A DNA stretch of 64,000 nt, from the NCBI RefSeq assembly GCF_000346465.2, contig NC_034013.1, positions 4,881,791 through 4,945,790 on the forward strand, written 5' to 3'. The position numbers and the translations under genes were made by a program. Within the stretch, counting starts at the first letter, position 1. Every line of letters begins with the position of its first letter. The stretch comes from Prunus persica. Its lineage: Eukaryota > Streptophyta > Magnoliopsida > Rosales > Rosaceae. Shown here in pieces: positions 45,870 through 61,524 of the stretch. The notes below the pieces were generated by a model. It was not told where the DNA came from and ran no database searches. It saw only the letters and a list, made by a program, of their open reading frames with translations.

Positions 45870-46511
45870 TGATAGGACCCGCCCTGGAATTCCTCGAAAA
45901 CCAGGACGAATCCCGTCTTGTTACCGACATCACCCTATGTCGGGCCTACTTACTAAAAATTGAGACTTTCTACCAAAAATTTGGCAATCTCCCTTGTAAA
46001 TTGAGCAATCCCAAAAATTTCAACCTGCATAAATACATAATATAATCCCAACCAGCAGCATGCATTCAACATTTAACAGTATACACTAAATGGCCTCCGG
46101 TCTCACAAGTAAAACCTAACATGGGCAATAACAGAGCATTTAACGAATTTAGTTTACCAGAACAACCATTTGAGTAGAAGGAAATTACTTGAAACCTAAT
46201 CTACTGACGTTCACGGTTCAGGGCCTCGAACACGGCTTGCAACTTTCCGAAACCCATCAGAGCGACTACTGTTTGGGGGGCGCAAAACAGAAAACATGTG
46301 AGTGGACAAAAACAAAGTTTGCATTCAAAACAACATAATAACCCCACCGTGTAAAAATAATGATCAAAACATGCAGATTCAATAACTTTTATTTAATGAT
46401 CAAAAACATCATTCTCCGAAACCCTTTAAAACTAAACACTCTTTCCATAAACTTTATTCCCACAATTATACTTCTCTTACCAAACCACTGTATATACTTT
46501 AACCGACTTAC

Positions 46512-46514
<3 letters not shown>

Positions 46515-46552
<38 letters not shown>
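46515..46552. repeat. (CA)n microsatellite
   Basis: It is about 19 CA units inside the solo LTR. Confidence 0.95.
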
Positions 46553-46554
<2 letters not shown>

Positions 46555-46711
46555 AGTATAATTATATATCCAAAAATATACATAATATTTATCACACTAC
46601 TTAGGTACCGGGAAACAATCCAACCAGGGGATTGTTTGGCTAGCCCGCAAGATTTCCTGTTGCTATCCTGCGTCTAGGGATGAGCGGTCCAACCGGGGGA
46701 CGAAACTCCAT

Positions 46712-46968
46712 AGCTCACACGCCGAAAATTCCAACGCCACGTGTAGCTCCAATACTAAGTCCTACGCGCACAAACTACATCATCGCCGGAAATTCCAACG
46801 CCACGTGTGATGATTCCTAGCAATTCACATAATCTTCCCATACACTGGAAATTCCAACGCCATGTATAGGAAGTGTCTCACACACCTGAAATTCCAACGC
46901 CACGTGTGAGACTTAATCAACACATGTTCTTCCCACATGTCGGAAATTGCAGCGCCACGTGTGGGAAG
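46712..46968. repeat. Five-unit hairpin array with a shared G-box core
   Basis: Five units share the core GAAATTCCAACGCCACG with few changes, at 46,712-46,748, 46,779-46,814, 46,834-46,873, 46,875-46,912 and 46,929-46,968. Each unit is bounded by its own inverted arms: AGCT(c)ACACG/CGTGTAGCT, ATCATC/GATGAT, CTTCCcATACA/TGTATaGGAAG, GTCTCACAC/GTGTGAGAC, CTTCCCACA/TGTGGGAAG. Arm sequences differ between units but stay complementary within each. Four of the five units contain CACGTG or CACGTGT, a G-box. Confidence 0.85.
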
Positions 46969-48555
46969 CCTAGTAACTAGGGGATGGTATTTACATAATG
47001 TAATCATATAACTTCAACCCATCATACTAAATTCCCAGATCCCCCAAATTTCAACTTTTCCAATCAAAAATCACATTCTCAATTTAATATTACCAACATC
47101 TCAACTTATTAATTTCTCAAACTTTAATCCAAAATATCTATATGTATATAAATAAATCCATTTTATGCATAACCTTCCAATCATATAAAATAATGCATAT
47201 TTAAAATAAATGTCCACTCACAAGCAGTCCCACGCTACCTGACCCTGAGAGAGTCCCGCCTGCTGCGTACGAGAGGCCAGAGCACCTATTTCAAGATACG
47301 AACCCTTAATTAATATAAAATCACTTCGAAATGGAATTCACAAATTAAATACTTATTTTTCCATGTTCCCGATGCGTGTACGTAGAACGAGGTATTCTAA
47401 GGTATGACTACGGGTTTAGGAAACACGTCCTGCAGGTTTGGTCAGAAATGGACAGTTATCGCAAACCATAAACTTCAAGTTATTGAATCGGAACATCCGG
47501 GGGGCTCCGATTCATGATCGACAAATTCCTACACGATTTTAGGAGTATCTAGATCAACATATTTTGATTTGGAAACGATATAATGGTTCAAACCTATCGA
47601 ACCCGGATAACGCACAATAGGCGTAACTCCGTTCGATAGTCAAACGACATTTGAATTAAAATCCGAGCACACCTACGCGCTCGTGACAACATGAGGATCA
47701 CATCATGACAAAAAGTGGCTTCACCACCCTTGCCCACACGCACCGGCAGCGCGTGGGTGTGTAGAGAAATTTTCTACGACGGAAAAACTCCACACTGCAA
47801 TCCACTCTTTCTACCCTAGCTGTAACACCCTATTTGGAGTCACTTTTGCTCTTGAGCCTACCCCAAAAAGTGACCGGAAGTGGCCGAAAACGCGATCCCA
47901 AAACTGGCAAAATTTCAAATAGAAAATTAACTAACCTAGGCTCCAAATTAATGCTACCCAACCATCAGCCTGAGCATGGAAAATAGTCGAAAATCCATAC
48001 CCTACTCGACTAAATTGGTGAGGAATTGAGAGAGAACGAGCGGTTTGAATATTTGGAAAATTCAGCTCGTTTTCTGCAAATTCCATTGGCCTGAGTGCAC
48101 GGTGGAGGCGGCGACGGGGTAGAAATGGACGGGGAAGGAGAGGCAATCCTTTTGGGACCAGTGCCGGCGCAAAGGACGGCCAGAGGTGGCGGCGGTGGCC
48201 TCCAAAGCTATCGATGAACAGTATGAGGGAAGGGGTTTGTCGTGTGAGGGAGGAATCGGGGAGAGAGAGAGAGAGAGAGAGTGAGGAGAGAGAGAAGGAA
48301 TCTGATTTTCATTAAACTCTTTTTACAGTTTTGCCACTGATGATGTTTTGCTCGTAACTTCTTCGTTACAACTCCGATTCAAGCCTACCGCATGTCTGTA
48401 GACTCATCTCAATACAACTTACGTAACCATACCACTTGTTGTCCCAAAATTCTACTGGATAAGAAATGACCAAATTAACCCTAATCCGAGAGTAAATTCG
48501 TAATTTCAATTAAATAATTTAAATGTGGAATTAAATTTGGAGTCGGGGTGTTACA

Positions 48556-51760: not shown

Positions 51761-52519
51761 TGCCTCAACTTCTTCAGTTTCTGTTCAGCCTTCACAAGTT
51801 CTTTAGAAGGACTAACGACAACTTCACAAAGGTTACTTTGTTCCTCTATTGCACTTCCGCTTTTGTTGGCATAAATCGTCTTCACCTTGTTCCCCTTCGT
51901 GTTACGGCTCTTTGAGCATCACCTTCCTCTAAATGCCAATTTGAGAAAACCCCCGTGTCTTGGACTTAATGAAACCCTTGTCCTTTTTCCTTTCTTACAA
52001 CTTATAGAGCTGGGGGTTGCAGCCTCTTCCTTTGCCTCACTTATTTCCTCAATGATAATATTGTTGGCACCAAGTCCCATAATATGACGATCCACCCCAG
52101 TCGGCCCATGAATGCTGGCCCTAAGTTGTTGTAAATTGTCGTTACACTCCTTAGGGAAGGCCCATGGTGGAAGAGTATCTGGGTCACACCAGTCTCGTTC
52201 TAAAGAGAGCCCATTAACAACTAAAGTTAAGGTCCCATTTTTGTAATGGGTACCAAAACTCTTTGGGTCTCACAGTCTGCGAATTATAGGCCTACCCAAC
52301 GTTGTAGAGGCAGCATTTGTTGCATGCTGCAGCAATTCAGGTCTGTTTAAAACCTCAGACTGAGGGGGAGCAGCTGCAGAATTTGACTTGTGCTGCAGTG
52401 ATGCAGGTCCATTCAGAGCCTCAGACTGAGAAAAAACAGCTACATAATTTGTCCCGATTTGCTCTCGGGCCTCGCATTCTCCATGATCTCTGGCGAATCC
52501 GTACAGACCTCCTTCTTCT
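51761..52519 (-). other. LINE ORF1-ORF2 linker
   Basis: This low-complexity linker between the zinc knuckle and the endonuclease holds fragments such as ELVKAEQKLKKLRQEN. A direct duplication near 52,318-52,440 ('cagactgagggggagcagct' / 'cagactgagaaaaaacagct') is visible. No separate gene is seen. Confidence 0.55.
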
Positions 52520-53048
52520 CGCTCTCATCGATATCTCCAGTGATTCACGTCGAAACCACTCGTCGGAGCGGTCAGTTTAGCATTGGGGAATAGTAGGGAG
52601 AAGGCCCTAGAGATAGGAGGAGTTCGCATCTCTTCACCATAATGCCAATTTTCTTTAGCCATGCATGGGTTTAGAGGCCATTGACAACCTCTTGTGTGGC
52701 CTAACCTACCATTACCCCGTGGATGGACATGGCATGATGAAACCAAGAGGAAGCAGTTTTGTTTCATCTAGATCGACCCGGATTCTAAAAAATCCTCTGA
52801 ATCCAGCTTGCTCTATATCTTCCACTTCCATAACAGAGCCAACCCTTGCCCCCCAAGACTCTTGCATTCTTACTGGTGCATAGATTCCTTGGAAACCCAT
52901 GGGCTTGAACCCAATAAACAGCCCGGTCTACCGAGATGTCATGAAGAAAGTAATAAATTGGCCAGTGTTTTATCGTAAAAGTAAAACCTTTGATGAACCA
53001 TGGGTTGCCTTCAAGAAGATGACGTGCTATGGCCTCCTCACCTACAGT
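52520..53048 (-). pseudogene. LINE ORF1, C-terminal part
   Basis: From 53,048: ITVGEEAIARHLLEGNPWFI then KGFTFTIKHWPIYYFL (DUF4283-type), a frame change near 52,900, MEVEDIEQAGFRGFFRIRVD, and NGRLGHTRGCQ, the remains of a CCHC zinc knuckle. It continues the ORF that starts at 55,821. Confidence 0.75.
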
Positions 53049-53053
53049 GATAG

Positions 53054-54894
53054 TGTAACAACCCGATCCTAAATTAATAGTTAAATATTAAATTATTCAA
53101 GGAAAAGACAATTTTACCCCGAGAATATTGAAATGATTTAAGAGTTGACTATTATTCGGGAGGTTAAATGATTAAAATAAGAGGAAGTAAATTTACATGA
53201 GAAAATAAAGTGAAATAAACAATAACATAAAATGATTTAAATTAATTTAGGCTTTTGAAAATTAAAGATATTATTTAATATAAAAAGGGGCAAAAATGTC
53301 ATTTTAAGTTCAGGAAGAAATTTAAAAATTTCGATTGTACCGTTGTGTAGGGCACATCGAGATGAGTCCGTAGACACGTACTGGGCTCAGATCCGAGTTG
53401 TAACGAGAGAGATACGATCAAAATTCAAGTTGGGGCAAAATCATAATTGTACCAAACTGGTTTTTCAACCAGAATCTCTCTCTCCCCCCTCTCTGGTGTG
53501 ACAACACCCCTCCCCACCCCAACCCCCAAAACAGTACCTTCGGTTTTTTGCTTGCCATCTCCTCCACTGGCCACCAAATTTCATGATTTTGGTACCAAAA
53601 CGTCAAGCTCACTTCCCTCTTTCCATCTCGACCAACTTCAGCCGCTGGAACCACCGGTGCTGGCCGAAAAATGCAAAAAATTGAGCTGTTTTTGACAGAT
53701 TTTCTCAAGCTTCATTCGAACGATTTCGGGCACCAAATCTTGCGATCTAGATATGCTTTTCCATGTATTCTTCGAGCTCTAGCTGATGGTTGGCTAGGAT
53801 TTGATTGATTTGTATCATAGATAACCGGAAATACGAATTGAAATTTGGCCAATTTTCAAATTGAAATTTCAGCCACTTCCGGCCCTCTTTTGGGTAGGTC
53901 CAAGAACAAAAGTGATTCCAAATAGGGTGTTATACCTAGTATAGGAGTTTGGGCTGGCGGTTTGGAGTATTTTCGGCTGCCAAAAATTGATCAAGCCACC
54001 CACACATTGCCAGCGTATATGGGCGGTGCGTGGGCTGCATAGTGAGGTCACTCTCAGTTCTAAAATGATCCTCGTATTGTCATGAGCGCGTAAGAATTCG
54101 CGGATCTCAATTTGGACAACGTTTGAGCCCCGATCGGATCTCGCATATTGTTCGATTTCTGGGTTTGATACATTTGAACCGTTGGATCGTAGTTATTCTC
54201 ATATATGTCAATCTAGACAATTTCCAAATCGTGTAGGATTCAATGGATTGGGAATCGGAGTCCTGGATACTCCTAAAAGGCCAACCCTAGGGCTAGGTTT
54301 ACGGTAACCGTCTGATCATGAGTAGTCCGACCGTCTGATCGAGACCAAACTCTCGGGACATGTGTCCTTGGCATTTTAAGACCTCTAGGAACTCTCAAAT
54401 TGCAATCTTGAGGTCGTGGACCCCACGGGGTCCCGAGTTGACTTTTTGAGACTTATCGCTTTTTGAGTCCCGAGACACTTCTAGACCGTTCTAATAATTG
54501 GAAATGCTTACATAGGCTTGAGAATGACTTCAAATACAATGCACGCACTTCTAAGAGCCCAGGGCCAAGACTTTGGATTAAATAATGAGGATGAGCTCCA
54601 TAGGATATGGTTGAGCTTATAGAAAGCTCATGTGTGTGCGAGTGTTCATTTGGTTTAGTTATGGTTTTAAGTTCATGATTTTATGTGATTTTGGAATGAG
54701 TATTTAATTATTTTATTTATCACATGTTTTTATATATATATATATATTCATATGGTTAATTGTGTTGTAAGATGATAAATATAATATTGGAATGACATGT
54801 TAATTAAAGATTGAGATGGTTAACAAACTAGCTAAGTATTTAATACATCTATTCAATAGTTGAAACGGATGAATCATAGTCCTTGGCTTTTATC
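53054..54894 (+). repeat. Long LTR (third copy of the family, + strand)
   Basis: It starts TGTAACAACCCGATCC and ends near CTTTTATCA. The first 1.2 kb matches the two solo LTRs in reverse: 'gagatgagtccgtagacac', 'gagttgtaacgag', 'gcaaaatcataa', 'aaatagggtgtta'. The last 0.6 kb differs, which suggests a separate subfamily. It is followed directly by TTTGGTATCAGAGCC, an initiator-Met tRNA primer-binding site. Confidence 0.7.
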
Positions 54895-54895
54895 A

Positions 54896-54970
54896 GTTTG
54901 GTATCAGAGCCACTCTGACGTGTAGTGCGAGTGTGTTGACGAGGATGTTGGGCCCCTAAGGGGGGTGGAT
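54896..54970 (+). other. Primer-binding site to polypurine tract, + orientation
   Basis: TTTGGTATCAGAGCCACTCT begins it and GCCCCTAAGGGGGGTGGAT ends it. The same segment occurs inverted at 55,247-55,320 between the Cassandra LTRs. Here it is not followed by a forward LTR but by an inverted Cassandra LTR. Confidence 0.75.
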
Positions 54971-54977
54971 TCTAAAT

Positions 54978-55246
54978 TGTCACATCCTAGGATCGGCTCC
55001 GCCGTAGCACGATATTGTCCACTTTGGTCTCCCTCTCTGCCCTCACGGTTTTGTTTCTGGGAACTCACGAGCAACTTCCCAGTGGGTTACCCATCCTGGG
55101 ATTGCTCTAGTCCCAACTCGCTTAACTTCGGAGTTCCCATGATTCCGAAGCCAGTAAGCTCCCAAAAGGCCTCAGGTTAGATGGAGGCGGGCATGTACAT
55201 ATAAGGCATATCACCCCATCTCCGTTGGTCAATGTGAGATGTTACA
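54978..55246 (-). repeat. Cassandra TRIM, 3' LTR (minus orientation)
   Basis: It is 269 bp, TGTCACATCC...GATGTTACA on the + strand. It carries a 5S rRNA-like segment at 55,059-55,152 ('gggttacccatcctgggatt' and 'acttcggagttcccatgatt', each complementary to 5S-type sequence). A 5S-like promoter in the LTR is the hallmark of Cassandra elements. It closely matches the LTR at 55,321. Confidence 0.85.
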
Positions 55247-55320
55247 ATCCACCTCCTTAGGGGCTCGACGTCCTCGTCGGCACACTCACACCACACGGCA
55301 GAGTGACTCTGATACCAAAT

Positions 55321-55590
55321 TGTCACATCCTGAGATCGGCGTCGCCGTAGCACGATATTATCTGCTTTGGGCCCCCCTCTTTGCCTTCATGGTTTTGTTT
55401 TTGGGAACTCACGAGCAACTTCCCAGTGGGTCACCCATCCTAGGATTGCTCTAGCCCCAACTCACTTAACTTCAGAGTTCCCATGACTCCGAAGCCAGCG
55501 AGCTCCCAAAAGGCCTCAGGTTAGATGGAGGCGGGCATGCACATATAAGGCACATCGCCCCCTCTCCGTTGGTTGATGTGGAATGTTACA
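55321..55590 (-). repeat. Cassandra TRIM, 5' LTR (minus orientation)
   Basis: This 270-bp LTR has its 5S-like segment at 55,403-55,496. Read on the minus strand: GGCTTCGGAGTCATGGGAAC, AAGTTAAGTGAGTTGGG, and CCTAGGATGGGTGACC, matching the 5S internal promoter and terminal domain. Between the two LTRs lie only 74 bp: the primer site ATTTGGTATCAGAGTCACTC and the polypurine stretch CCCCTAAGGAGGTGG. There is no protein coding, as expected for a TRIM. Confidence 0.88.
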
Positions 55591-55595
55591 GATAG

Positions 55596-55821
55596 CATAC
55601 ACTTTCTCCTTGGCTTTGGTCACCTTTACTGCACCCATATTGTTCCATATGGCTCGAAGAATCTCTTTAACAACTGATTGTGGCGGCTCATACTCAGCGA
55701 TGAGGAGTCCCACCAAGGTAATCTTGTTCTCCGGTCATTCTTGTAAGTCTAGAATATCTTCAAATTGTATGGCTAGCTCATCCTCGTATGGAATACCATC
55801 TTCATCCGGGAACGTTGCCAT
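55596..55821 (-). pseudogene. LINE ORF1, N-terminal part
   Basis: It starts MATFPDEDGIPYEDELAIQF and carries an in-frame TGA at 55,737-55,735. It then reads ITLVGLLIAEYEPPQSVVKE and ILRAIWNNMGAVKVTKAKEK (DUF4283-like) up to VYAI at the insertion site of the composite element. Confidence 0.75.
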
Positions 55822-56025
55822 CACGGGAAGAAAGATGAGATGGCTAACAGGATAGAAACAAGTATGACAGGAACTAACTCAAGGACTTTCTCGAGAGAAA
55901 GCAACACCTAAAACCTTAGGGATACACCAAAGCCATTGCAGCTCACATCAGACCATAAAGGCCACAGCTGCTAGTGTTTCATGTTTCCATCAAAATATTA
56001 GTTGAAATTTGTATACTTTTCAATT

Positions 56026-58619: not shown

Positions 58620-58807
58620 TATTCAGTGGTGGTTTTATCCCCACATTTACTTTATTTATTGTATAGTGTAGGTTTATTACTCATATAATTTATTTACTGT
58701 ATGGTGTAGGTTTATTACTCATACAATTTATTTACTGTATGGTGTAGTTTTATTACCCATATAACAGTATTTATTTGAAAGTGTGGTGCGGGTTTATCGT
58801 CCACACT
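58620..58807 (+). repeat. Tandem repeats, left part
   Basis: Units of about 45-60 bp read 'tatttactgtatggtgtagg' then 'tttattactcatataattta', becoming 'agtgtggtgcgggtttatcg' and 'tccacac' at the right edge. They continue on the far side of the solo LTR. Confidence 0.75.
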
Positions 58808-58812
58808 ACTGC

Positions 58813-61215
58813 TGACAGGACCCACCCCGGATTCCTCGAAACCCGGGACGAATCCCATCTTAATTCTGACATCAACCCGATGCCGGGCCCACTTATTAAA
58901 AACCGAGACTTTCTACCAAAAATTTGGCAGAGTCTCCCATGTAAATTGAACATTTCCCAAAATTTCAGCATGCTCAAAATTCATAATTTAAAATCCCAAC
59001 CAGCAACATGCTTTAAAGCGAATAAACAGTTTACGACAAAGGCCTCCGGCCTCATAAATCAAACCCTAGCACGGGCGATAACAGAGCATATCTAAGAAAT
59101 TCGATTTACAACAAAAACAAAGTTCAATGAGAATTAAATGATGAAAGATTCCTACGAAGGCTCAAGATTTGGAAGCATATGAACCGGCTCGGCTACGGAG
59201 CTTAGTCAATTACTGGCTGGGGGTGCAAAACAGAAAAGTGTGAGTGGACAAAAATAAGATTCAATTCAATGTAAACCAACATAATATAACCCCACCGTTT
59301 AGAAAACCATGCAAGAAATCCAAATGCATCCCAAAACCATCATAATCAAGTATACATATATATTTATATCAAGTTAAATCAATACCGGATGCCAAGTCCG
59401 AAATCCATAAAGAACACTTTACAAACCCACTATTCAAATATTATAAATCTCGAAACTAAACTTTCGAAAGCGTACCCATTGGCACGACCGGCAAGGAAGT
59501 ATCCTCACTAAACTCTCGAAAGCATACCTAATGGTTTTATATATATATATATATGACAATCACCTAGTTGTACCAGGGAAACAATCCAACTGGGGGATTG
59601 TTTGACTAGTCCACATGGAAGAGCCCGCATAAAAAAGAAATTCCTCAATTGACCATGTGGCTAGGGAACCAACCGTCCAACTGGAGGACTAACTCTCAGC
59701 CAGCACGTATAGTCGACACTCTCAAAACTTGTATGCCTGAAACCAGTCCTACGTGCACAGACTACCCGTCAAAGATGCCCCGGGTTCCGACATTTTCAAG
59801 TATCTCAAGTTTCCATATCCAAGTTCCAAATCCGAGGAGGTACATAGGGTAATGCTTATAGCACTCCAAACTGACATTCTGTACTCAAATCTTTCCACAA
59901 TCTCATCTCAACAACCCAAGTACCCCACACATAGACAATTATAGATAGAATTTCTCAAAATCCATAAATACATACTCAAGATACTCAAATATGTCAAAAC
60001 CCAAAATATATTGCCAATGCATCATAAAAATATCAATTTTAACAATTGAATAAATAATATATCCAAAACACCATTAAAATATTATGCATAATTTTTTCCA
60101 TCATAAAACCATGCATAAGATTTGAAAACAAAGTCCACTCACAGGAAGTCCCACGCTGCTTGACCCTGAGAGGGTCCCGCCTACTGCGTATGCGTGGTCG
60201 GAGTACCTATTTCGGAATATGAACACGAGATTAACACAAAGTGTTTAGAACGAGAACTTTGAATTAACATCCTAGTTTTCCGGATTTCTAGTGAGTGTAC
60301 GAGGAACGAGACAATTTGAAAATTCTTAAGGGTTCCACAAGGTTTAGGATACAAGTCTTGTAAGTTTGGTCCGAAACGGACGGTCAAATTGCTCACGCTC
60401 ACACAATCGGAAGGTTATCGTAAAAACCCAAACTTTAAGTTATTGAATCGGAACATCCGGGGTTCCGATTCACGATTCGCGAAATTCCTACACGATCCTA
60501 AGAATGTCTAAAGTAACGTATATTGGAATGAGGTCAATTCAACGGTCCGAACATGTCGAACACGGATAACGCACAGTAGGAGTAAATTCGTTCGATAGTC
60601 AAATGATATCCGAATTGAAATCTGAGCACACCTACGCGCTCATGAGGACTAGGAGAACACATTGGGATAAAATGCACATTTGCTATAGTGCCCACGCGCA
60701 GCCACATACGCCAGCAGCCCAGGGTGTCCAAAGCAATAACGCTTCTCCGGAAAATCTCAACATCTCAGTTCAACACTCCTACCCTGGATGTAACACCCTA
60801 ATTGGAGTCATTTTTGTTCTTCCGCCTACCCCAAAAAGTGACAAGAAGTGGCTGAAAACGCGGTCCCAAAATCGGCAGAATTTCAAATCGAAAATCAACT
60901 AACCTAGGCTCAAAATTAATGAAATCTCACCTAACCATCAGCTAGATCATGAAAAATAGGTGGAAATCCATACCTTACACGTCAAATTTGGTGGCGGGAG
61001 GAGAGAGAACGAACAACGAGAAGTTTTGAACTAAACCGGCCTGTTTTCGTGAGAATCTGTCAGCTACGATGGCTGCCGGCGTCAGAGGTAGGGGGAACGG
61101 AAGGAGGAGGACGTGGCGGTCCTTTTGGGACCGGTGCCGGTGAAAATGGAGGTCGGACGTGGCAGTGGTGGGGTGAAAACCAATCGGCTGTTTTGAGAGG
61201 AAGGGGGATGTTTGC

Positions 61216-61260
<45 letters not shown>

Positions 61261-61524
61261 TTCATATTTTTATCAAACTCTTATGATTTTGCCATAGGTG
61301 ATGTTTTGCTCATAACTTCTTCGTTACAACTCCGAATCGAGTCTACTACGTATCTACGGTCTCATCTCAGTACGATCTACCTAAAAATATTATTTGTTAC
61401 CCCAAAATCTCTCTGAAGAAGAAAATGACCAAAATACCCCTACCCCAAGGGTAAATTCTTAATTTCATATTTAATTGAATTAAATAATTTAAACATGGAA
61501 TTTAATTGGAGTCGAGGTGTTGCA
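58813..61524 (-). mobile_element. Solo LTR, 2.7 kb (second copy)
   Basis: On the + strand it runs from TGACAGGACCC to GAGGTGTTGCA, with perfect target repeats ACTGC at 58,808-58,812 and 61,525-61,529. It is collinear with the solo LTR at 45,870-48,555 over most of its length but lacks the five-hairpin array and the (CA)n tract. It keeps two small hairpins, AACAATCC/GGATTGTT near 59,580-59,602 and CCACATGG/CCATGTGG at 59,611-59,660, the latter with a GAAATTCC core in its loop. A (GA)n tract lies at 61,219-61,255. Confidence 0.9.

What the first reader, a model, noticed from the sequence alone, without database searches (positions are those of the whole stretch)
53049..55595. Composite retroelement with ends from two families and one shared target repeat
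GATAG flanks a block whose left end is the long-LTR family and whose right end is an inverted Cassandra LTR. Between them a + oriented primer-site/polypurine segment abuts an inverted Cassandra LTR. One target repeat for the whole block suggests that a chimeric, partly inverted cDNA was integrated by TGTAACA...TGTTACA end recognition. I know of no standard element with this layout.
Basis: partly seen in the sequence, partly recalled or inferred. Interest (0 to 1): 0.76.

Follow-up and report, generated by a model that had tools for sequence, protein, structure and literature searches.

The report
Hybrid of two plant jumping genes
A piece of plant DNA that looks like one insertion is built from two different kinds of jumping gene, one of them backwards, and similar fusions elsewhere in the same genome hint at which element family helps the helpless 'Cassandra' element to move.

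Summary
GATAG at 53049-53053 and 55591-55595 brackets one block: the first 1.84 kb of a ~3.3-kb LTR, then a Cassandra primer site/internal domain/polypurine tract on the + strand, then a complete Cassandra (LTR-internal-LTR) on the - strand. Both outer ends are U3 ends (TGTAACA...TGTTACA). A paralogue of the interrupted sequence on C4 is continuous across the site, so the block behaves as one insertion.

The fusion itself is not a lone accident. Five other places match a long-LTR-type 3' end joined at the shared primer site to Cassandra's internal domain. In 3 of 3 that I could read, a Cassandra LTR follows; only 18-20 bases of the long-LTR side were read there. The window's left junction reads best as such a fusion that lost ~1.46 kb of its LTR.

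Template-switch complexes and inverted TRIM arrays are in print. Recurrent Cassandra/long-LTR fusion was not found in seven literature searches. It bears on Cassandra's unidentified helper: a lead, not proof. New variant of a known kind.

The parts
53049..53053 (.). left copy of the 5-bp target-site duplication GATAG
   Evidence: with one GATAG the joined flanks align without a gap to the C4 paralogue
53054..54895 (+). first ~1.84 kb (U3 side) of a ~3.3-kb LTR of a Ty3-type-looking family; starts TGTAACAACCCG, stops mid-LTR at ...TTTTATCA
   Evidence: full-length relatives start at the same place and continue further to GGGTCCTGTCA or close to it
54893..54898 (+). junction J1: TCA (common to ...TTTTATCA and ...CCTGTCA) followed by spacer GTT, the same spacer as in the fusion at C2:13690148
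   Evidence: the deletion reading is inference
54899..54970 (+). Cassandra internal domain in + orientation: primer-binding site TGGTATCAGAGCC, internal part, polypurine tract AAGGGGGGTGGAT (72 nt)
   Evidence: 88-92% identical to the 7 other copies compared (L060, L061, L062, L003-L006)
54971..54977 (.). junction J2 (TCTAAAT): reads as the first bases of a U3 end (TGTAA, one mismatch) running into the AAT tail that lies between Cassandra's LTR end and its primer site
   Evidence: interpretation is inference
54978..55246 (-). Cassandra LTR (3' LTR of the inverted element)
   Evidence: 5S-like stretch 55056-55165
55247..55320 (-). Cassandra polypurine tract, internal domain, primer-binding site and ATT spacer, inverted
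55321..55590 (-). Cassandra LTR (5' LTR of the inverted element), whose U3 end TGTAACA forms the right end of the block (TGTTACA on +)
   Evidence: 5S-like stretch 55400-55509
55591..55595 (.). right copy of the target-site duplication GATAG

Best explanation
The block is one insertion of an aberrant reverse-transcription product made where RNA or cDNA of a long-LTR, Ty3-type-looking element and of Cassandra met, most likely in one virus-like particle. Steps: (1, inferred from recurrence) plus-strand strong-stop DNA of the long-LTR element moved, at plus-strand transfer, onto Cassandra minus-strand DNA through the tRNA-iMet-type primer site that both share, giving long LTR - primer site - Cassandra internal domain. 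(2, inferred) About 1.46 kb of the long LTR was lost through a TCA microhomology, before or after integration. (3, inferred) At the polypurine tract/U3 border the strand was joined to, or copied onto, the U5 end of a complete Cassandra cDNA in reverse, so that the molecule had a U3 end at both sides. (4, well supported) An integrase joined the long-LTR U3 end and the Cassandra U3 end to a 5-bp staggered cut, leaving GATAG on both sides.
For: One 5-bp repeat around the whole block with both ends exact; chance agreement of two 5-mers 0.0012. The C4 paralogue of both flanks aligns with one GATAG-equivalent and no gap at the site. The long LTR and Cassandra share the primer site TGGTATCAGAGC and 20-22 of 25 bases at the polypurine tract/U3 border (one long-LTR copy, L037, against 7 Cassandra copies). 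Five other genome places carry a long-LTR-type 3' end, spacer, primer site and Cassandra-type internal domain at 0-1 mismatch, reversed-pattern control 0. 3 of 3 read continue into a Cassandra LTR, with different LTR ends and with spacers GTT, ACT and GCT rather than Cassandra's usual ATT, so the crossover lies inside the shared primer site, the acceptor site of plus-strand transfer. J1 carries spacer GTT. J2 retains an AAT tail that an integrated outer U5 end would lack (inference). Private divergence is similar: left piece 0.043-0.049, half of the Cassandra LTR-pair distance of 0.121.
Against: J1 and J2 rest on few bases and each can be read more than one way. J1 is found only here (one search scored 40 of 488 candidates), so step 2 is not seen elsewhere. 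At the other fusions only 18-20 bases of the long-LTR side were read: 19 of 20 like the window's family in L061, but best 17 of 19 (L060) and 16 of 18 (L062) to a sister solo LTR. Of the two unread fusions one (C4:17818406) has the spacer ATT and is uninformative on the crossover. The block's two Cassandra LTRs are not resolved as sisters and share only one exclusive state in the LTR alignment, so origin in one reverse-transcription cycle is not shown. Target repeats of the other fusions were not checked. No RT or integrase was tested for the long-LTR family. No assembly reads were available.
Confidence: 0.67

Rival explanations
1. An ordinary inverted Cassandra inserted first (GATAG on both sides). 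Later a double-strand break at its left edge was repaired with filler copied from elsewhere, including a long LTR and a Cassandra internal domain.
For: Filler capture in plant break repair is known (recalled). J1 and J2 show only short microhomology.
Against: The filler would have to begin exactly at the first base of an LTR and abut the target repeat exactly. The fusion at the primer site recurs at five other places, which break repair does not predict. J2 keeps an AAT tail that an integrated outer LTR end lacks.
Confidence: 0.13
2. A tandem fusion (long LTR - internal - Cassandra LTR - internal - Cassandra LTR) inserted as one piece, and its terminal Cassandra LTR-internal-LTR was flipped afterwards by recombination between the short inverted repeats at the Cassandra LTR ends (TGTAACATCC / TGTCACATCC).
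For: A second Cassandra LTR/primer-site match lies about 670 bases beyond the fusion at C1:16301546, as a tandem would give (coordinates). A polypurine tract joined to a flipped LTR without extra bases is seen by pattern at C6:9798822 and 9799104 and by letters in L002.
Against: A clean flip leaves GGAT|TGTCACATCC; the window has seven extra bases (54971-54977).
Confidence: 0.12
3. Two separate insertions (long LTR and Cassandra) were later fused by recombination that deleted the DNA between them.
For: [quoted passage not shown]
Against: It predicts unequal outer repeats and loss of target DNA. Observed are equal repeats and a paralogue that aligns across the site without a gap.
Confidence: 0.04
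4. Assembly error at J1 or J2.
For: Both elements are high-copy repeats (469 Cassandra LTR-end/primer-site matches); no reads were seen.
Against: Equal target repeats and exact ends are not expected from a mis-join. J1 carries a non-Cassandra spacer and J2 a short filler. The fusion type recurs.
Confidence: 0.04

Closest known systems
Template-switching complex LTR retrotransposons (Sabot and Schulman 2007, PMC1950507; main text read in both parts)
   Same: Complex element formed before integration and bracketed by one 5-bp target repeat; co-packaged RNAs proposed.
   Different: Theirs carry a third LTR in direct orientation and very similar outer LTRs. Here the outer ends belong to two families, one part is inverted, and the fusion point is the primer site.
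Tandemly arrayed TRIMs, including one array with two inverted TRIMs and one target repeat in maize (Gao et al. 2016, PMC4717578; section 8 with the Fig. 2 legend, and passages)
   Same: Short LTR elements joined in inverted orientation inside one target repeat.
   Different: Single family (Zma-SMART) in that figure; no fusion with a long-LTR element in the passages read.
Cassandra TRIM elements (PMC7215508, PMC10853983, PMC10886601; passages read)
   Same: 5S-bearing LTRs of ~270 bp, Met primer site, short internal domain, tandem forms.
   Different: No fusion with another family was in the passages read. PMC10886601 says there is no indication of the autonomous family responsible for Cassandra mobilisation; PMC7215508 calls the partners unknown.
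Dasheng/RIRE2 in rice (recalled; only a search listing seen)
   Same: Chimeras between a non-autonomous element and its presumed autonomous partner were used as evidence of partnership (recalled).
   Different: Those share LTR sequence (recalled); here the LTRs look unrelated and only primer site, polypurine tract and U3 terminus are alike.

Membership tests
Cassandra TRIM (right half and + internal domain) | 5S rRNA-derived sequence in the LTR | tested here: met
   Rfam RF00001 on the - strand at 55056-55165 (E 0.00043, 32.2 bits) and 55400-55509 (E 0.016, 26.2 bits); both are below the gathering score of 38
Cassandra TRIM (right half and + internal domain) | short LTRs around a short non-coding internal domain with Met primer site and polypurine tract | tested here: met
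   LTRs 269 and 270 bp, internal domain about 72 bp, TGGTATCAGAG, AAGG(A/G)GGTGGAT-like tract
Long-LTR retroelement (left half) | family copies with TG...CA ends and 5-bp target repeats | tested here: met
   One search prints nine copies; L050 has an internal domain on both sides. Of the other eight, by eye: 3 exact (L052 ACATG, L049 GTGAG, L057 ATAAA), 2 agree in 4 of 5 (L047, L051), 3 do not agree (L048, L054, L056)
Long-LTR retroelement (left half) | complete LTR in the window | tested here: not met
   only the first 1.84 of ~3.3 kb
Ty3/gypsy superfamily (long-LTR family) | RT, RNase H and integrase of Ty3 type in an autonomous member | not tested
   The internal domain at L050:2198-3020 has no long open frame; no autonomous member was sought. 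The Ty3 label rests on a recalled polypurine-tract context
Template-switching complex (PMC1950507) | common 5-bp target repeat around the complex | tested here: met
Template-switching complex (PMC1950507) | highly similar outermost LTRs | tested here: not met
   the outer LTRs belong to different families; TGTAACA is common to both ends
Template-switching complex (PMC1950507) | formation before integration | tested here: inconclusive
   favoured by the target repeat, the empty paralogous site and the retained AAT tail; not directly observable

The most novel reading that the evidence does not exclude
The long-LTR, Ty3-type-looking superfamily is the helper of Cassandra. The two RNAs are packaged together and reverse-transcribed by the same enzyme, so that plus-strand transfer repeatedly crosses between them at the shared primer site, and the same integrase inserts molecules with one long-LTR end and one Cassandra end. 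The genome then keeps a fossil record of particle sharing that identifies the partner of a non-autonomous element even when their LTRs are unrelated.
Probability: 0.4. Interest if true: 0.8.

Novelty: new variant of a known kind. Interest (0 to 1): 0.6.

Why it matters
The element that mobilises Cassandra, a very widespread plant TRIM, is stated to be unknown (PMC7215508, PMC10886601; passages read). Fusions whose crossover lies in the primer site are expected if two RNAs share a particle and a strand transfer goes astray, so they nominate a partner without needing LTR similarity. The window's copy adds that one integrase seems to have accepted an end of each family in a single event. Both claims can be checked in Rosaceae genomes with a simple scan, and the same scan could nominate partners for other orphan TRIMs.

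Tried and rejected
C6:16743214 was taken as a second polypurine-tract/inverted-LTR junction; its letters (L059) show an ordinary Cassandra, so it was dropped. One search gave 6 matches against 3 for the reversed-pattern control. C1:5253621, C2:7263778 and C1:41236719 from it were set aside on their matched letters alone. Of the 18 matches (control 0), the 16 with 2-3 mismatches were read, from their matched letters alone, as ordinary outer LTR ends and not counted. Of the 10 matches (control 0), the five with 3 mismatches carry GTGACAATT, an ordinary Cassandra end, and were not counted.

My own first reading of J1, as a direct switch from mid-LTR to Cassandra's primer site at a GGTAT microhomology, was given second place: the spacer GTT is not Cassandra's usual ATT and equals that of the C2 fusion. 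The LTR tree was meant to test whether the block's two Cassandra LTRs are sisters; it is unresolved. Three partial LTR matches (two in L002, one in L003) were dropped as short before that tree. In the internal-domain comparison, L059 was looked for but not matched by the search expression, and L002, L007 and L008 were not given. The possible reciprocal fusion (Cassandra LTR with the other internal domain, 9 matches, control 0; C1:39141286 the most Cassandra-like) could not be read.

My first empty-site alignment had left out two bases of GATAG when joining the flanks and showed a 2-base gap there; repeated with one full GATAG it has no gap.

Papers: PMC4079214 (Cassandra in pear) and PMC7750724 (Cassandra in beet) are not held, so reports there of inverted or fused forms cannot be excluded. 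That fusion of Cassandra with a long-LTR family is not in print rests only on searches and on the passages read.

Full report
WHERE IT IS. The window is G000:C5:4881791-4945790 of a 227.5-Mb genome in 192 contigs. The sizes of the large contigs match peach as I recall them; no call names the species. 'Cassandra' and 'Ty3-type' are names from recall, tested only as far as stated below.

THE BLOCK. GATAG stands at 53049-53053 and 55591-55595, directly outside TGTAACAACCCG (53054) and ...TGTTACA (55590). Two random 5-mers of the flank composition agree with probability 0.0012. Both flanks have a diverged paralogue: C4:14575385-14575710 (left, 68%) and C4:14575256-14575381 (right, 71%), both on the - strand. 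Joining the flanks with one GATAG gives an alignment to that locus without a gap in the 55 columns around the site (the earlier version had left out two bases of GATAG). The paralogue reads TATGG where the window has GATAG. The interrupted sequence reads on the - strand as a DUF4283-like fragment (PF14111, E 1.3e-5, 25.4 bits against a cut-off of 27.2; one of three pieces matched). So the 2.5 kb behaves as one insertion, and two separate insertions with loss of the DNA between them are unlikely.

LEFT PART. The query 53052-54893 gave 77 matches from the 40 candidates scored of 2271. Of 29 relatives examined at the J1 position, two aligned too weakly to judge and none of the other 27 shows a primer site there. 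The nine copies laid out have LTRs of 3.2-3.9 kb ending GGGTCCTGTCA or close to it. Of the eight that are not followed by an internal domain, three have exact 5-bp target repeats, two agree in 4 of 5 and three do not agree (by eye). One locus, L050, shows the end of an LTR - ACT - TGGTATCAGAGCA - about 0.82 kb internal domain - AAGGGGGTAGAT - a full LTR - ACT - primer site and internal domain again. The three forward frames of the internal domain have no long open frame; one ends NFENEIFIRG before a stop, which I recall as typical of the end of Ty3-type pol. No RT or integrase was tested. The internal domain is rare: 46 matches from 40 scored of 510 candidates, of which only the query itself and C8:8789950 cover nearly all of it.

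MIDDLE AND RIGHT PARTS. 54899-54970 is a Cassandra internal domain in + orientation, 88-92% identical to the seven other copies compared and 84% to the block's own inverted internal domain. 54978-55590 is a complete Cassandra on the - strand: LTR 55321-55590, spacer and internal domain 55247-55320, LTR 54978-55246. Both LTRs match 5S rRNA, below Rfam's gathering score (E 0.00043 and 0.016). The genome has 469 matches (up to 3 mismatches, control 0) to the Cassandra LTR-end/primer-site junction.

JUNCTION J1 AND THE RECURRENT FUSIONS. The 25-base J1 pattern with up to 3 mismatches occurs once in the genome, in the window; among the 40 of 488 candidates scored with a DNA query across it, only the window spans both sides. 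Taken alone this looked like a single accident. However, a pattern joining the complete long-LTR 3' end to Cassandra's internal domain at the primer site found ten matches, control zero. Five have 0-1 mismatches: C2:13690148, C6:16000069, C1:13975788, C1:16301546 and C4:17818406. The other five have 3 mismatches and carry the ordinary Cassandra end. I could read three of the five. All three continue through a Cassandra internal domain and polypurine tract into a Cassandra LTR. On the long-LTR side only 18-20 bases were read, and 11 of these were asked for by the pattern. L061 agrees with the window's family in 19 of 20; L060 and L062 agree best with a sister solo LTR of this window (17 of 19 and 16 of 18). 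Their spacers are ACT, GTT and GCT, not Cassandra's usual ATT; of the two unread ones C1:13975788 has GCT and C4:17818406 has ATT, which is uninformative. In the three read, the crossover therefore lies within the 12 bases TGGTATCAGAGC that both families share. That is the primer-binding site, where plus-strand strong-stop DNA is passed to the minus strand in every reverse-transcription cycle (established knowledge of LTR elements). Fusions with different LTR ends at that point are what stray plus-strand transfer between co-packaged templates predicts.

The window's J1 reads ...TTTTATCA|GTT|TGGTATCAGAGCC. It carries the spacer GTT, and the best match of its internal domain among the candidates scored is the C2 fusion (92%). 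The simplest reading is a fusion of this kind that lost ~1.46 kb of its LTR between TCA and TCA. A direct switch from mid-LTR to the primer site is the alternative; it needs one chance substitution in the spacer.

JUNCTION J2. After the polypurine tract GGTGGAT come TCTAAAT and then the inverted LTR end TGTCACATCC. TCTAA fits the first bases of a U3 end (TGTAA, one mismatch), and AAT fits the tail between Cassandra's LTR and its primer site. That tail is expected on unprocessed linear cDNA and lies inside an element, but not outside an integrated LTR end. This favours joining at the cDNA stage; it rests on few bases. Joins of a polypurine tract to a flipped LTR without such extra bases are seen by pattern at C6:9798822 and 9799104 (letters not read) and by letters in L002, so inversions at this border recur in Cassandra.

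AGE. The Cassandra LTR pair of the block differs by K2P 0.121, about 0.06 per copy. The left piece has a private branch of 0.043-0.049 over 1627 columns against three relatives. The values are compatible with one event, but both families look star-like, so the test is weak. The LTR tree (15 rows) does not resolve the two LTRs as sisters, and they share one exclusive state.

MECHANISM. The best-supported account is: heterologous plus-strand transfer at the shared primer site; loss of part of the long LTR; joining or copying onto a reversed Cassandra cDNA at the polypurine tract/U3 border; and concerted integration using two U3 ends, one from each family. The last step is well supported by sequence, the first by recurrence; the other two are inferred. 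The elements are alike where a reverse transcriptase and an integrase act: primer site, 20-22 of 25 bases across polypurine tract and U3 start (one long-LTR copy against seven Cassandra copies), and TGTAACA at the outer ends.

WHAT IS KNOWN. Sabot and Schulman (PMC1950507, main text read) use a common target repeat to recognise complexes formed by template switching. Gao et al. (PMC4717578, section 8 and passages) show an inverted tandem TRIM with one target repeat. Kalendar et al. (PMC7215508, passages) offer template switching as one origin of Cassandra arrays and call the partners unknown. Kojima (PMC10886601, passages) states there is no indication of the family responsible for Cassandra mobilisation. 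Fusions of Cassandra with a long-LTR family at the primer site were not found in searches; two relevant papers are not held.

LIMITS. The target repeats of the other fusions, two of the five fusion sequences, all but 18-20 bases of their long LTRs, and the possible reciprocal fusion at C1:39141286 are unread. iMet primer sites are common in plant LTR elements (recalled), so the shared primer site alone is weak evidence. A scan against other iMet families is the missing control.

Noticed in passing
window 45870-48555 (-): Solo LTR of a sister long-LTR family (TGTAACACCCCG...GGGTCCTATCA), flanks CCAAA/CCAAG (4 of 5).
   Followed up: partly
window 58813-61524 (-): Second solo LTR of a sister long-LTR family, with exact 5-bp target repeat GCAGT.
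   Followed up: partly
window 58644-58757: Three 38-bp direct repeat units head to tail, about 55 bases outside the solo LTR at 58813-61524.
   Followed up: no
L002 1225-2155 (C3:27136688-27139831): Cassandra array with LTR - internal - partial inverted LTR - LTR end - internal - LTR: a second polypurine-tract-to-flipped-LTR join.
   Followed up: partly
   Followed up: no
G000:C1:39141286 (+): Cassandra LTR end and primer site followed by CTTTAGG, like the other family's internal domain: possible reciprocal fusion; unread.
   Followed up: no
G000:C1:16301546 and C1:16300881 (-): A second Cassandra LTR/primer-site match about 670 bases beyond a long-LTR/Cassandra fusion, as a fused tandem array would give.
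   Followed up: no
L050 2121-7385 (C8:6580000-6589900): Long-LTR element in the order LTR end - internal - LTR - internal: a tandem form of the long-LTR family itself.
   Followed up: no
window 52500-53053 and 55591-55900 (-): The insertion interrupts a DUF4283-like sequence whose translated frames also hold stop codons.
   Followed up: partly
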